NCBI GenBank assembly: GCA_001931905.2
Contig: MSJI02000318.1
Span: 1-32,188 of the forward strand
Source: Cladosporium sp. IMV 00045
Lineage: Eukaryota; Ascomycota; Dothideomycetes; Cladosporiales; Cladosporiaceae
Direction: 5' to 3'
Length of the DNA: 32,188 nucleotides
Positions 5,069 to 30,784 of this stretch are shown in pieces; position 1 is the stretch's first letter; each line of letters begins with the position of its first letter. The position numbers were made by a program, and so were the translations under genes. The notes beneath the pieces were generated by a model. It had not been told where the DNA came from and made no database searches. It saw nothing but the letters and a program-made list of their open reading frames with translations.

Positions 5069-6373
5069 ATGCCCCCTCTCTCGGACGCCGGCCTTGATGC
5101 CGCACAACTCCTCATCATCATGGCTTCTTCCCTCGTCAAACATGTCGCCTTGAACCCAGTGGTCACTGGACCTCTCCTCTACATCCTTATTCAAGCGCCA
5201 CCGCACATCCAGCAGCCGGTACTACAAGCGCTACGCCAATACGTGTCGCCTCAAACCCTGGAGCGAGCTGTGACGGCTTTGAAATGGCTCCTTGGCCTCG
5301 GTCTCGTTCGCGTCGTGAACCGGTTCCTCTCTGAGCTGGCCCAAAACAACTTCCGCTTCAGATCAGAGAAGCACAAATATGACTGGCCAAAAGAGATCGC
5401 CGTAGTCACCGGAGCAGCAAGTGGCTTCGGTCGACTCATCAGCGAAGGGTTTGCCGCAAAGGGTATCAAGGTGATGGCCCTTGACATCCACGACTCACTT
5501 CCTCTGGACATGCAAGCGAACAAGAAAATTCATTACTACAAATGCGACGTCACGTCGGCAGATGCTGTCAACCAGGTTGCCGAGTTCATCCGCTCCGACC
5601 ATGGAAACCCGAGCATCCTGATCAACAATGCTGGTATCGGTTCAGATAAACACATTCTGCAGATCGAGCCGGAACAGCTGAAGCGTATGTTCGATGTCAA
5701 CACTGTCAGCCACTTCTACACTGCCAAAGCCTTCGTGCCGTCTATGATCGCGCAGCGTAAAGGCCATGTCGTTACGCTTGCCTCGATGGCTTCTTTCATG
5801 GCTGCTCCGGTAAGTCTTATCAGAACACATTTTTCTGAATTGCGGAAGCTAACGTGTCGATAGTATGTCACATTATTCTCGTTCCATATCCTGTCCCCTT
5901 TGCAGTAAATTGCATACGACGTCAAACAAGAGCATACTGACCTATCAAACAGAGGCATGGTGCACTACTGCATGACCAAATCCTCCGCGCTCGCCTTCCA
6001 CGAAGGTCTCGCCTCCGAGCTCCGCAGCAAGAAAAGCGGCGCCCCGGAAATCAAACTAACCTGCGTGCACCCGACCTGGGCAGCGACGCCCTTGATCGCT
6101 CCCTACCGCGAGAAGATCAACAAAAGTGGACAGACCATCATCGACCCGCAGACCGTGGCGGACGCTGTGGTGAAGCAGGTGATGAGCGGGAGAGGCAAGC
6201 AGATCATCCTCGGTGGAGGTTTGGGTTGGCTTGCGGGTGCTCGGGGTTGGCCGCATTGGGTGACTGGTGCTATCGGTATGGTGCAGGCTTGTGAGTGATC
6301 TTGTTGTTCAGATTCATGCTGTGGTTGTCTACTTGCTAATTTCTGTTTAGCGCAAATGGATGCCATGCAGTGA
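5069..6373 (+). CDS. Short-chain dehydrogenase/reductase, RDH10/SDR16C-like, membrane-associated
   Basis: NAD(P)-dependent oxidoreductase, 366 aa after splicing: exons 5069-5808, 5953-6290, 6351-6373. The N-terminal ~110 residues hold hydrophobic stretches (for example LLYILIQ and LKWLLGLGLVRVV) suggesting a membrane anchor. The Rossmann fold follows: TGAASGFG cofactor loop (114-121), NNAG (186-189), catalytic Ser239 (VVTLASMAS) and YCMTK (Tyr252, Lys256), with the family's usual 13-residue Ser-Tyr spacing. The layout resembles the retinol-dehydrogenase-10/SDR16C group, but the substrate is unknown. The first intron cannot be one ordinary intron: the frame only works as a stwintron (separate entry). 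The last intron (6291-6350) has donor GTGAGT and acceptor TTTAG and leaves the short tail SQMDAMQ. Start at 5069; the ATG at 5120 (ATCATGG) is in a stronger context and is an alternative. Confidence 0.9.
5809..5952 (+). other. Probable [D1,2] stwintron (twin spliceosomal intron)
   Basis: The internal intron is 5810-5863: donor GTAAGT, branch-like GCTAACG, acceptor GATAG. It lies between the first G (5809) and second base of the external intron's donor. Removing it joins G5809 to TATGTCAC and recreates a GTATGT donor. The external intron (5809 plus 5864-5952, 90 nt) then has branch TACTGAC and acceptor AACAG. The join gives CC|A GGC ATG, restoring Pro-Gly-Met-Val-His-Tyr and the YCMTK active site. 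Removing 5810-5952 as one intron shifts the frame. Stopping after the internal intron leaves an in-frame TAA at 5906-5908. Confidence 0.85.
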
Positions 6374-7328: not shown

Positions 7329-9500
7329 ATGCTGTCCTCCAGGTTCATGCGGAACGTAAGTGGCCGTCGCATCTCCTCCCTTTTCCTGCTCTTGCGACCA
7401 ACATCGGCTAACCCATCATCCAACAGGCCGTTCCGCGCGCCACCTCTTCTCTTCGTTCCTCCGCATACAGATCCCCCATCACCTCAACATTCAGGAGATC
7501 ATACGCCGAGAAGATCGACAGCGATGAGAAGGTTAAGGGCCCCGTCATCGGTATCGACTTGGGTACCACCAACTCCGCCGTCGCTCTCATGGAGGGCATG
7601 AACCCCAGAATTATTGAGAACTCCGAGGGTGAGCACATGCGCCGCATTAAGAAGATGGAATCGATGGAATACTGACAATACATCAGGTGCCCGTACTACT
7701 CCCTCAGTTGTCGGTTTCACCAAGGAGGGTGAGCGTCTGGTCGGTATTGCCGCCAAGCGCCAGGCCGTCGTCAACCCCGAGAACACTCTCTTCGCCACCA
7801 AGCGTCTCATCGGTCGCAAGTTCTCCGACGCCGAGGTCCAGCGCGACATCCAGCAGGTCCCCTACAAGATTGTTCAGCACACCAACGGCGATGCCTGGCT
7901 CGAGGCCCAGGGCCAGAAGTACTCTCCTTCGCAGATCGGTGGTTTCGTTCTCGGCAAGATGAAGGAGACCGCTGAGGCCTTCGTTGGCAAGCCCCTCAAG
8001 AACGCCGTCGTCACTGTTCCCGCCTACTTCAACGACCAGCAGAGACAGGCCACCAAGGACGCCGGTCAGATCTCCGGTCTTAACGTCATGCGTGTGATCA
8101 ACGAGCCCACTGCCGCCGCCCTCGCCTACGGTCTCGAGAAGGACGACCGCGTTGTCGCCGTCTACGATCTTGGTGGTGGTACTTTCGATATCTCCATCCT
8201 CGAGATCTCCAGCGGTGTGTTCGAGGTCAAGTCCACCAACGGTGACACCCACCTCGGTGGTGAGGACTTCGACATCACCCTCGTCCGCCACCTCGTCCAG
8301 CAGTTCAAGACCGAGCAGGGCATCGACCTCTCCGGTGACCGCATGGCCATCCAGCGTATCCGTGAGGCCGCCGAGAAGGCCAAGATTGAGCTGTCCTCTT
8401 CCCTCCAGACCGACATCAACCTGCCTTTCATCACTGCCGATGCCTCTGGCCCCAAGCACATCAACACCAAGATGACCCGTGCTCAGCTCGAGGGTCTCGT
8501 CGAGCCCCTCGTCAGCAGGACCGTCGAGCCCGTCCGCAAGGCCCTCAAGGATGCCAACCTGCAGTCCAAGGACATCCAGGATGTCATCCTTGTCGGTGGT
8601 ATGACCCGTATGCCCAAGGTCACCGAGACCGTCAAGAGCATCTTCGGCCGTGACCCCGCCAAGTCGGTCAACCCTGACGAGGCTGTCGCCATCGGTGCCG
8701 CCATCCAGGGTGGTGTCCTCTCTGGCCAGGTCACTGACCTCCTCCTTCTCGACGTCACCCCTCTGTCTCTCGGTATTGAGACTCTCGGCGGTGTCTTCAC
8801 CCGTCTGATCAACCGCAACACCACCATCCCTACCAAGAAGTCCCAGACCTTCTCTACCGCCGCTGACTTCCAGTCCGCTGTTGAGATCAAGGTCTACCAG
8901 GGTGAGCGTGAGCTTGTCCGTGACAACAAGCTCCTCGGCAACTTCCAGCTTGTCGGTATCCCCCCTGCGCACCGTGGTGTCCCCCAGATCGAGGTCACCT
9001 TCGACATTGACGCCGACTCCATCATCCACATTGGTGCCAAGGACAAGTCCACCAACAAGGACCAGTCCATCACCATCGCTTCCGGCTCCGGTCTGAGCGA
9101 GGAGGAGATCCAGGGCATGGTCAACGACGCCGAGAAGTACGCCGGCCAGGACAAGGAGCGCAAGGCCGCCATTGAGGCCGCCAACCGCGCCGACTCCGTT
9201 GCCAACGACACCGAGAAGGCCCTCAAGGAGTTCGAGGACCGTCTCGACAAGAGCGAGGCCGAGCCCATCCGCGAGAAGATCAACTCCCTCCGCGAGTTCA
9301 TCGCCAAGAGCCAGGCCGGCGAGGGCGAGATCTCCGCCGAGGAGATGAAGACCAAGACCGACGAGCTCCAGCAGGCCAGCTTGAGCCTCTTCGACAAGAT
9401 GCACAAGGCCAAGGCCGAGCAGCAGCCCGAGGGCCAGCAGCAGCAGGAGGGTCAGCAGGGTGAGCAGCAGCAGGGTGGTGAGGGCGAGAAGAAGCAATAG
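7329..9500 (+). CDS. SSC1: Mitochondrial Hsp70 chaperone (Ssc1)
   Basis: Matrix Hsp70 that drives protein import with the TIM23 motor and folds imported proteins; 680 aa. Exons: 7329-7355 (only MLSSRFMRN), 7427-7628, 7687-9500; introns of 71 and 58 nt. An Arg/Ser-rich presequence ends near FRRSYAEK (about residue 37). The ATPase domain shows the first phosphate motif [10 protein letters not shown] (50-59), then [21 protein letters not shown] and the [11 protein letters not shown] motif. The substrate-binding domain carries [15 protein letters not shown] and an alpha-helical lid. The C-terminus is a Gln/Gly/Glu-rich low-complexity tail ending GEKKQ, with neither HDEL nor EEVD, which together with the presequence argues for a mitochondrial rather than ER or cytosolic paralogue. 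Strong C-ending codon bias indicates high expression. Confidence 0.97.
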
Positions 9501-10648
9501 ACTGCCTGATTCTCCGACCTGATACCTCGTCTGTCTGTTGATTGTTTTGATAATGTTTCGAGCGACTTGATTTTTTTATGTTTGCATATCCACACCACCC
9601 CAAAAGCGCGAAATCGCAAACGCTGTACTTTTAACGCAGCGCTTCACATAGCGCTTTATGTATCTATACTCTTGCCCTCACACTCGCCTACTTCGGCTTG
9701 GTGAGGGTAGTCCCCTTTCTTCCAACACACACACTTCTTATTCTTATTATCGAGCACCTCTCAACGTTTAGGAGGGAAAATGGCGAGCACCGGGTTTCGC
9801 TTGGCGTTTCGAGGACGCATGTGTGGGAAGAAACAGTTTTGGGGGAATGATGCAACGAAGCATTGTTGTATTGGTTTTGACTACTTGGTGGTTATACCCG
9901 GATTGCTGGGCGCAAGAGGATGAGATTTGCCGATTTTGTGTATTATATCCCTCTCCGCTCTTCATACAATAAAAGCAGATTTCTTGATCACAACATCTCC
10001 TCGATGTGATGTGCACCGCATTGGATCGACTCCTCTCCCTTTGACTGGTGTTTTGCGCGTTGCGTTCAGCATCGAAATTGCATAAGGCTCTCAGGTAGAG
10101 GTACATGTGCACTTTATACCTTATTCTACTCAGACCATCTGTATACATGCAGATTGTCTTACACACCCCCCATGCGTTCTCTCAATCCAAGTCGTCGGCT
10201 CGATTTGCTTTTCAGCCTTGCCGTTGGGCTGGAGATTGGCGACCCACCGCAGCAGGATTCGCAGCCAATCATTATTCTCAAGTGCTCAGGCCCACTCGTC
10301 TCTATGGTGTCATCTGAGACGGCAAGAGCTCTATACTTTCGACCGCCTTCGAGCTTGGAGGCCGGTCTGAGGCAAACTGGGCGGCAGCGGTGGTCGCTGC
10401 TGCGCGTAACGCCCGGCCAAGCTCTTCTCTTCTGTGCGTGTGTGTGTTTGTGGCCGTTTCGCCGACGCGGTTTCTTGCTACTCTGCTTGTTCCACTGCGT
10501 TTCCTCCTTAGAGTAGGTGTATATCATCAATCTCATCACGCGCTCGCGCTTCGTCGGCATTCACGCGCATTCATCGTCTAAGGGACCGAGCATACATATA
10601 TCGATAAACAACAGAAATCGCCTGTCCGAATAGCCTGTCCGAGTCACC
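9501..10648. other. Intergenic region: SSC1 3' flank and PNS1 promoter
   Basis: About 1.15 kb. The SSC1-proximal part holds two AGCGCT palindromes 6 nt apart (9638-9643, 9650-9655) and a stem-loop at 9675-9707. The PNS1-proximal part holds a short GT-rich stretch near 10433-10453. No supported gene. Confidence 0.5.
9675..9707. other. Inverted repeat / stem-loop in the SSC1 3' flank
   Basis: CCCTCAC (9675-9681) pairs with GTGAGGG (9701-9707), with an inner GCC/GGC pair set around TACTTC. It lies 175 nt after the SSC1 stop, so it may be part of the 3' UTR. Function unknown. Confidence 0.5.
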
Positions 10649-28940: not shown

Positions 28941-29762
28941 TCAACCCTTGAAACTCTCCTCCGCCTTCTTATACTCCTCCCCAAAGGCCCCATACCACCT
29001 ATCCGTCAACTCCCTCCCCATACCCGCACTCACCACATCCTTATCCTCCTCCAACTGACTCTTGACCTCCTCCATAAACTCCTCCACCGTCAACGCATTC
29101 GCGCCCTTCTCCTTCTTATTGTCATCCGGATTATCTCTCTCCCGATGCAAATCCGTCCCAACACTCGGCGGCAGAATCTCCACAACCCTCACATCCGTGC
29201 TATCCGCCTCAAGCTGCGAGCGCAGGTTCATCGTCCAGAAATGCACCCAGGCCTTGCTGCCGTTGTAGACGGGGTTGATGATGCTAAACGGGCTGATGCC
29301 CAGGACGGAGGAGACGTTCATGATCACGCCGCCTGTGCCGCCGGCGCAGTGCGCTTTGAGGTGAGGCAGGAGGTGCACGGCGAGGTGCATGGGGCCGGAG
29401 ATGTTGGTGTGCAGTTCCTGGTCGGCTTTGGGCAGGAATTCATCGGCGCTCATGTTGTTGACGTCCAGGGGGCGTTGCACGCCGGCATTGTTCACGAGGC
29501 AGTCGAGTTCCGGGTGTTCCTGGGTGATTTTGCGGATGACAGGGACGATTTGGCTGGTGTCGCCGGTGTCGATGAGGTAGTAGGGGATATCGCCTAGTTC
29601 TTTCGAGGTGGTTTGGAGTTTGGATTCGGTGCGGCCGGCGATGATGACCTTTTTGCCGAGTGAGAGGAAGTACTCGGCCATGGCTCTGCCGATGCCGCCT
29701 GCGCCGCCGGTGATCAGGGCGCACTTGAAGTCGAGGATCTTGAAGCGTTGTTCGGTCGCCAT
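28941..29762 (-). CDS. Short-chain dehydrogenase/reductase, DltE-type
   Basis: Soluble NAD(P)-dependent oxidoreductase, 273 aa, single exon, normal length for a classical SDR. Cofactor loop TGGAGGIG (18-25), NNAG (91-94), a Ser pair at 151-152 (MNVSSVLG), and the catalytic Tyr166 and Lys170 in YNGSK. The C-terminal part has a charged segment (DNPDDNKKEKG) and an acidic helix (EEFMEEVKSQLEEDKD), as in the DltE-like group of uncharacterised fungal oxidoreductases. Substrate unknown. Not closely related to the membrane-associated SDR at 5069: it lacks the N-terminal extension and introns. Start CCATGG at 29762 is clear. Confidence 0.92.
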   Translation of the reverse strand: MATEQRFKILDFKCALITGGAGGIGRAMAEYFLSLGKKVIIAGRTESKLQTTSKELGDIPYYLIDTGDTSQIVPVIRKITQEHPELDCLVNNAGVQRPLDVNNMSADEFLPKADQELHTNISGPMHLAVHLLPHLKAHCAGGTGGVIMNVSSVLGISPFSIINPVYNGSKAWVHFWTMNLRSQLEADSTDVRVVEILPPSVGTDLHRERDNPDDNKKEKGANALTVEEFMEEVKSQLEEDKDVVSAGMGRELTDRWYGAFGEEYKKAEESFKG

Positions 29763-30784
29763 GGTTGTGGTTTGGTCTGGGTTGTGAGGGTGGGTGTTTG
29801 TGTATAGCTTGTTGGGTGTTTTGCGAGAGTGGCAATTTAGATTCCTTTTGAGACAAAGGAGAGATGTAAAGAGACGGAGATATACTTACACCACTACAGT
29901 AGAGAAACAAGTAATCTTCCTTGCAAGAGTCGAGTGGAAACGACCGGATATTTTTCGCGCGCGGCTGTTCATCACATATGACGATGCAAATACTCAACCC
30001 ACCCATTAGAAATCCATTGCGGACCCTTACATCATATATCGAAGAAGTGACCGCGGAGTCGGAACATGCGGTGGAGCTCGTCGGCAGACTGACCGAATGC
30101 CGGAGAACATGACTCTGCCATTGCTCAAGAAGGCGAAAAGAAGGAAGGAAGGAATAGAAGAAACTTGCAAGGAGGCGTTGGCAGCAGAGAAAGATTTTCA
30201 AGCATCTCCGTGGTGAGACACTCGGACCTTCGACTCGCGAGATGGGATTTCATCGTTTGCGATGCAGCGATGATAAGGTAATCAATAAGGTACCATCTCT
30301 TCTCTCGCCTGCATTCATCATTCTGACCTCCGCACCCTCACCAGTTACGTGCAATTATGCCAGAGCCGTTTCCTCAACATCTCCATTATACCCTTAGATG
30401 CCTTGCCTTCCCTCTAGTCGTTGTTGTTAGTTCAGTCCTTCATTCCAAGAAAACGATCAAAAGATCCAGTTGGCTGTCGGCCCTCGCGAAAACCATAAGG
30501 TACATTGCAAGCACGAAACATCAAATTGTCGAACGGTGATGACGAAGTCTTCAAATAGAGAAATGAATCTCGTTTCAAAGCGATCGGTCTTACTTTTTGG
30601 TAAAATAGTCTATTTCGAGAGCCACCCATGGAAAAATCCCTTTTCATCAATCAAAATTTCATGCCACCTTCAACGGGCGGCAAAGATATAGTAGTGATAA
30701 CACAAAACCCCAAAACGCCATGCACGCTGATGAAGTCTCTTCTTTTCCCTTCCACATCCCCACCCCATCAACTCAAAAGCCAGC
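29763..30784. other. Intergenic region between the DltE-type SDR and NOG1
   Basis: About 1 kb holding the SDR promoter (left) and the NOG1 3' flank (right). The short frames here lack coding features. No RNA gene recognised. Confidence 0.5.

What the first reader, a model, noticed from the sequence alone, without database searches (positions are those of the whole stretch)
5809..5952. Stwintron placed directly before the SDR active site
Seen: nested donor/branch/acceptor sets, and a frame that works only if 5810-5863 is removed first and the rebuilt GTATGT donor is then used. Known: [D1,2] stwintrons are described in filamentous ascomycetes but are uncommon. Inferred: excision must be sequential, and failure of the second step meets a stop three bases after a competing TTGCAG acceptor (5901-5905 region). 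Because Tyr252/Lys256 lie a few codons downstream, incomplete splicing yields an inactive protein, so the structure could act as an expression check.
Basis: partly seen in the sequence, partly recalled or inferred. Interest (0 to 1): 0.75.

Follow-up and report, generated by a model that had tools for sequence, protein, structure and literature searches.

The report
Intron within an intron, fungal dehydrogenase
A fungal dehydrogenase gene is interrupted by an intron that sits inside the start signal of another intron, so it should have to be spliced out in two ordered steps; this is a known kind of intron, here shared by relatives, and nothing seen shows that it acts as a control switch.

Summary
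Window 5809-5952 reads as a [D1,2] spliceosomal twin intron (stwintron): G5809 | internal intron 5810-5863 (54 nt) | rest of the external intron 5864-5952 (90 nt with G5809). Donors and branch points fit the fungal consensus. It is the window's only hit to the published [D1,2] formula (0.037 per shuffle). Of the models enumerated, only nested [D1,2] models give the protein that homologs demand.

Relatives agree. A Cladosporium fusiforme gene model keeps the external intron as a 32-residue insert at this site. Unspliced fragments of relatives show a phase-0 donor and a phase-2 acceptor, which one ordinary intron cannot join. Intron-bearing relatives form one clade (0.988) with one nested loss.

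Eight other genes of this 49.9-Mb genome have [D1,2] candidates across whose junction a known protein family or structure runs. The literature searched holds no report for Cladosporium. New member of a known kind; RNA evidence is missing.

The parts
5069..5808 (+). exon 1 of the SDR gene (ATG 5069; another in-frame ATG at 5120), ending with CC of the Pro247 codon
   Evidence: Pfam adh_short over residues 110-301 of the spliced protein
5809..5952 (+). whole [D1,2] stwintron, 144 nt
   Evidence: only hit of published model A in the window; nested model gives the homolog-consistent protein
5809..5809 (+). G1 of the split external donor
   Evidence: rebuilds GTATGT with 5864-5868
5810..5863 (+). 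internal intron, 54 nt, GTAAGT..GCTAAC..TAG
5848..5853 (+). internal branch point GCTAAC
   Evidence: fits RYURAY
5864..5952 (+). remainder of the external intron (90 nt with G5809), TATGT..ACTGAC..CAG
   Evidence: retained as 32 residues in the C. fusiforme gene model
5936..5941 (+). external branch point ACTGAC
   Evidence: fits RYURAY
5953..6290 (+). exon 2, first base completes Pro247; Tyr252 and Lys256 active-site motif YCMTK follows
6291..6350 (+). probable ordinary last intron GTGAGT..TAG; the end ASQMDAMQ resembles C. fusiforme ASQLDRMLE
   Evidence: sequence
6351..6373 (+). probable last exon with stop TGA (protein of 366 residues)

Best explanation
A [D1,2] spliceosomal twin intron in a short-chain dehydrogenase gene of a Cladosporium-like ascomycete. 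The spliceosome first removes 5810-5863, joining G5809 to TATGT and so rebuilding the donor GTATGT; it then removes 5809 plus 5864-5952 and completes codon CC|A (Pro247). The first exon base after it is A and not G, so the alternative [A2,3] route is closed and the order is fixed. It was most simply gained once in the ancestor of a clade of relatives and lost precisely in one of them; it is not a recent repeated copy. Shown: sites, frame, conservation of the split phases in translated fragments. Inferred: that and in which order it is spliced. No special function is needed to explain it.
For: Sites fit the consensus; only model A hit in the window, 0.037 per shuffle; of 58 open single-intron, 7 two-intron and 66 nested models only two nested [D1,2] models give AAP-GMVHYC; gapless alignment across the junction to 17-beta-hydroxysteroid dehydrogenase XI, 1yb1, E 1.7e-30; C. 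fusiforme retains the external intron as 32 residues starting YV = TATGT; 20 of 120 listed relatives read into the intron as Pro-Val (phase-0 donor) and 6 of 6 intron-reading 3' fragments of this group show AG|R (phase-2 acceptor); one clade, support 0.988; 3' fragments in one clade with the window gene, 0.93; eight other genes of the genome with the same architecture and a protein family running across the junction.
Against: No RNA evidence. The relatives' introns are read from translations, not DNA, and donor and acceptor come from different records except in C. fusiforme; Val-Ser can also be GTN TCN. The second copy of the gene in this genome breaks off before the intron, so no DNA comparison of the intron itself was possible. 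A second nested model (internal acceptor 5905, rebuilt donor GTAAAT) gives the same mRNA.
Confidence: 0.95

Rival explanations
1. One conventional intron, for instance donor 5810 (GTAAGT) with acceptor 5932 (GAG), adding HTDLSNR before GMVHYC.
For: Open frame; donor is good.
Against: Seven residues next to the active site that no listed homolog has; GAG acceptor; relatives show AG|R directly before the exon.
Confidence: 0.02
2. Nested, but with the internal acceptor at 5905 (TTGCAG) and rebuilt donor GTAAAT; same mature mRNA.
For: Gives the same protein; both internal acceptors may be used at times.
Against: GTAAAT lacks G5; by eye no YTRAY branch point shortly before 5905; C. fusiforme's retained piece starts TATGT, as the 5863 model predicts.
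Confidence: 0.03
3. The stwintron works as an expression check: its two-step removal is regulated and failed second-step splicing shuts the gene through a stop.
For: Retention of the external intron meets TAA 5906-5908, full retention TAG 5861-5863; the junction is five residues before Tyr252.
Against: The external intron of C. fusiforme is open and in frame for 32 codons; loss in P0002; no unusual RNA fold. C. fusiforme is a single test of the stop.
Confidence: 0.06
4. A recent copy from a multiplying family of sister stwintrons.
For: Such families exist in Hypoxylaceae and Xylariaceae (abstract and introduction of PMC12403724).
Against: One match of the 144 bases in the genome, itself; no BLAST similarity to the other fetched loci; position shared across a clade.
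Confidence: 0.01

Closest known systems
Uniquely occurring [D1,2] stwintrons of Hypoxylon sp. CO27-5 (PMC9024468)
   Same: Five motifs and spacings of model A; position-conserved in relatives and sequence-unique in the genome; 144 nt lies within their 114-313 nt.
   Different: Dothideomycete, Cladosporium-like host instead of Xylariales; RNA not seen here.
Sister [D1,2] stwintrons of Xylariales (PMC8469720, PMC12403724)
   Same: [D1,2] type.
   Different: No similar copy in the genome and no significant fold.
[D1,2] stwintron of lipS in Aspergillus (PMC5639578)
   Same: [D1,2]; an old position with losses that leave no intron (abstract and passages).
   Different: Other gene; lipS has a standard intron at the site in early-diverging classes, whereas I saw none at this site among the continuous ORFs examined.
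[D1,2]/[A2,3] alternatively spliced stwintrons, e.g. alternative oxidase of Helminthosporium solani (PMC5639578 passage)
   Same: Starts with GG; same donor split.
   Different: Exon after it starts with A (5953), so the [A2,3] route is closed.

Membership tests
[D1,2] stwintron | Complete internal U2 intron (donor, branch point, acceptor) | tested here: met
   5810-5863, consensus fit
[D1,2] stwintron | It splits the external donor between G1 and T2; removal rebuilds a canonical donor | tested here: met
   G5809 + TATGT
[D1,2] stwintron | External branch point and acceptor in range | tested here: met
   Model A match
[D1,2] stwintron | No single canonical excision gives the conserved protein | tested here: met
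   0 of 58 single-intron models
[D1,2] stwintron | Position and split phases kept in orthologs | tested here: met
   Translations only: C. fusiforme, 20 five-prime and 6 three-prime fragments
[D1,2] stwintron | Splicing intermediate lacking only the internal intron | not testable with these tools
   No RNA data held
Sister (repeated) [D1,2] stwintron | Sequence-similar copies elsewhere in the genome | tested here: not met
   Only itself
Sister (repeated) [D1,2] stwintron | Symmetrical, structured termini | tested here: inconclusive
   A terminal stem is drawn, but the whole fold is no better than shuffles, z 0.28; symmetry was not measured as in the papers
Regulatory poison intron | Stop on second-step failure conserved among relatives | tested here: not met
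   C. fusiforme external intron open for 32 codons; one relative only
Regulatory poison intron | Splicing changes with conditions | not testable with these tools
   No RNA data

The most novel reading that the evidence does not exclude
Cladosporium-like Dothideomycetes carry a sizeable, so far undescribed population (tens per genome) of old, position-conserved [D1,2] stwintrons, several of them next to or inside catalytic motifs (SDR Tyr/Lys, histidine-kinase H-box, catalase). The abundance seen in Hypoxylaceae would then be no oddity, and gain and precise loss of nested introns could be dated within one family.
Probability: 0.6. Interest if true: 0.45.

Novelty: new member of a known kind. 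Interest (0 to 1): 0.33.

Why it matters
It adds a well-supported, clade-shared [D1,2] stwintron in a Cladosporium-like fungus and shows how standard annotation can misread one: the C. fusiforme model keeps the external intron as 32 residues beside the active site. With eight further homology-supported candidates in the same genome, two of them in two diverged gene copies, the lineage offers a second system beside the Xylariales in which birth, conservation and precise loss of nested introns can be followed.

Tried and rejected
Single-intron, two-intron and other nested models were enumerated and set aside on protein homology and site quality (two-intron and nested models GT-AG only). No special RNA structure; Rfam and tRNA scans of the window gave nothing. 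A sister-repeat origin was not borne out. I sought the second gene copy to compare introns: contig C589 matches at 95% but ends at the equivalent of 5708 and no other contig with the rest was found.

A genome census stayed partial. A relaxed pattern of the first three motifs gave 69+54 hits against 38+45 for the reversed control; not all places were listed. I had 70 loci (30, 40); with the window they gave 70 distinct candidates. A codon-score test separated weakly from wrong-frame controls: gain of at least 5, 15 true frame against 6 and 9; at least 7, 11 against 5 and 7; at least 9, 4 against 4 and 4. So I claim no number per genome. For the other genes alternative models were not enumerated, and the candidates shown were picked from the top of that scoring. 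Superseded scripts: read one strand only, replaced; tree of mis-cut rows, replaced. The tree leaves out rows P0081-P0120 without the intron; that uses 68 chosen tips.

Full report
What is there. Between the codons for Ala-Ala-Pro and Gly-Met-Val-His-Tyr of a short-chain dehydrogenase (SDR) gene on the + strand lie 144 bases that start GGTAAGT and end CAG. Removing 5810-5863 first joins G5809 to TATGT, giving the donor GTATGT; removing 5809 plus 5864-5952 then joins CC to A GGC ATG. Donors GTAAGT and GTATGT fit GURWGY, and branch points GCTAAC (5848-5853) and ACTGAC (5936-5941) fit RYURAY. With a probable ordinary last intron at 6291-6350 the product has 366 residues. The junction codon is Pro247; Tyr252 follows.

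Is it more than chance. The formula with which the discoverers of stwintrons screened a genome (model A of PMC9024468; part of the methods and section 3.1 read) hits the window once on both strands, here. In 300 dinucleotide shuffles it hits 0.037 times on average; 11 of 300 have any. I enumerated gene models: 58 single introns (GT-AG, GC-AG, AT-AC) keep the frame open through Tyr252, but none gives AAP-GMVHYC; nor does any of 7 two-intron models. Of 66 nested models two do, both [D1,2] with the same outer boundaries; one has good sites, the other the weak rebuilt donor GTAAAT. The spliced protein aligns without a gap across the junction to 17-beta-hydroxysteroid dehydrogenase XI (1yb1, E = 1.7e-30) and fits Pfam adh_short over residues 110-301.

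Evidence from relatives. The protein search listed the best 120 of 3543 matches. The best is a Cladosporium fusiforme protein (75% identity over 95%). It has 32 extra residues, YVQTRSPSV...QLVS, exactly at the junction. Read back, they are TAT GTN ... AGN: the annotation removed the internal intron and kept the external one (96 nt) as coding. Twenty of the 120 leave the exon as Pro-Val-Ser (18), Pro-Val-Gly (1) or Pro-Val-Arg (1), as expected of ORFs that run into a GT donor in phase 0; Ser could also be TCN. A search with the 3' part gave 28 matches and one with an alignment of nine listed 120 of 249. Among the 120 proteins P0121-P0240, six of this group run upstream into the intron (P0125, P0128, P0136, P0138, P0145, P0163). 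In all six the residue before (D/G/E)(I/M)V is Arg, as AG|R would give: an acceptor in phase 2. By eye all six also have Thr-Asp, Ala-Asp or Leu-Thr a few codons upstream, compatible with ACTGAC, GCTGAC or CTAAC. One less similar fragment, P0212, has Arg in another register and stays undecided. A phase-0 donor with a phase-2 acceptor cannot be one ordinary intron. The six fragments lie in one clade (support 0.93, 34 of 68 tips) with the window gene, C. fusiforme, P0002 and P0008. These are translations, and the two ends come from different records except in C. fusiforme.

History. In a tree of exon-1 sequences the 22 tips with the intron (window and C. fusiforme included) share one clade (support 0.988, midpoint root) that holds only two others: P0008 (Polychaeton citri, an annotated protein whose introns I cannot see) and P0002, an ORF on a 36-kb contig that reads straight through the site and sits beside intron-bearing P0066. 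P0002 seems to run into the last intron, so I take it for unspliced genomic sequence. The simplest history is one gain and one precise loss. Loss without intronic remains is described for the lipS stwintron (PMC5639578, abstract and passages). The 144 bases have no other match in the genome and the RNA folds no better than shuffles (z = 0.28, 112 of 200 shuffles as good), so it looks like an old unique stwintron and not a recent repeated one.

The genome. The window is contig C315 of an unnamed 49.9-Mb assembly of 954 contigs. A second copy of the gene region, 95% identical in DNA over 2.1 kb, ends at a contig edge before the intron. A relaxed pattern for the first three motifs gave 123 hits against 83 for the reversed pattern. 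From 70 distinct candidates (window included) I translated 16 after removal of the stwintron and gave 10 of these to Pfam. In seven a domain runs across the junction (junction residues): zinc alcohol dehydrogenase L028, alpha-amylase L057, histidine kinases L026 (only about five residues of the domain lie before the junction) and L039 (between SHEL and RSPLHG of HisKA), MFS transporter L063, catalase L077, phosphoesterase L083. In two (L051, L043) the domain starts after the junction. L091 had no Pfam match but aligns across its junction with exo-1,3-beta-glucanases. The catalase aligns gaplessly and nearly identically across the junction to a solved catalase (9rwy); a catalase-phenol oxidase from Cladosporium sp. 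(9hxt) scores alike over the same stretch. L057 and L028 also align across theirs. For the MFS transporter and the catalase a second copy (L069, L023) has the same arrangement, with 84.3% and 92.5% identity inside the stwintron against 100% and 95.0% in the 60 bases upstream and 92.0% and 96.7% in the 150 downstream. That makes eight other genes with homology across the junction; alternative models were not enumerated for them. A codon-score test of the 70 separated only weakly from wrong-frame controls, so I give no genome total.

Mechanism. In Ascomycota splice sites pair by intron definition, and the internal intron must go before the external donor exists (introduction of PMC12403724 read). 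The downstream exon starts with A, so the [A2,3] detour that a G would allow (PMC5639578 passage) is closed. One-step use of the distal sites, documented as occasional missplicing, would leave one G and here gives a frameshifted ORF of 360 residues; retention of the external intron gives a stop at 5906-5908, and retention of everything a stop at 5861-5863. These are inferences from sequence.

The expression-check idea. It predicts that the stop after second-step failure is kept; in C. fusiforme the external intron is open and in frame. It also sits badly with a clean loss in P0002. I rate it unlikely, not excluded; the stop was tested in one relative only.

Comparison with print. The library search for 'stwintron' found 10 papers; with 'Cladosporium' one, a 2014 essay in which the two words are unrelated (passages); with 'Dothideomycetes' three; a further search with 'Capnodiales' added no stwintron paper beyond the first list. 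[quoted passage not shown] I saw none for Cladosporium or for this gene. The library lacks most subscription journals.

Noticed in passing
G000: C315/C589 (L003), C456/C496 (L063/L069), C8/C563 (L023/L077): Several genes occur in two diverged copies (95% DNA identity over 2.1 kb at the window's gene), so the 49.9-Mb assembly may hold two subgenomes or haplotypes.
   Followed up: partly
L039 (G000:C179) and L026 (G000:C21): Two histidine-kinase genes carry [D1,2] candidates inside conserved motifs: HisKA (SHEL|RSPLHG) and HATPase (RRI|ILNLVG).
   Followed up: partly
P0001, Cladosporium fusiforme Q7P37_005445: The public gene model appears to carry 32 false residues from a retained external intron.
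   Followed up: yes
P0147 (26-kb contig, source ncbi): A gene model close to P0002 joins exon 1 and exon 2 without intron but reads part of exon 1 in a shifted frame; a sequencing error, a decayed copy or a wrong model.
   Followed up: no
window 7602-9575: The minus-strand ORF matches Pfam NAD-GH (PF10712, E 3e-140) opposite a 632-aa plus-strand ORF; I recall that this Pfam family is the antisense of Hsp70, so the plus-strand gene is probably an Hsp70. Diverged matches to this stretch lie on three other contigs.
   Followed up: no
window 28941-29885, minus strand: A second SDR-type gene (adh_short) in the same window.
   Followed up: no
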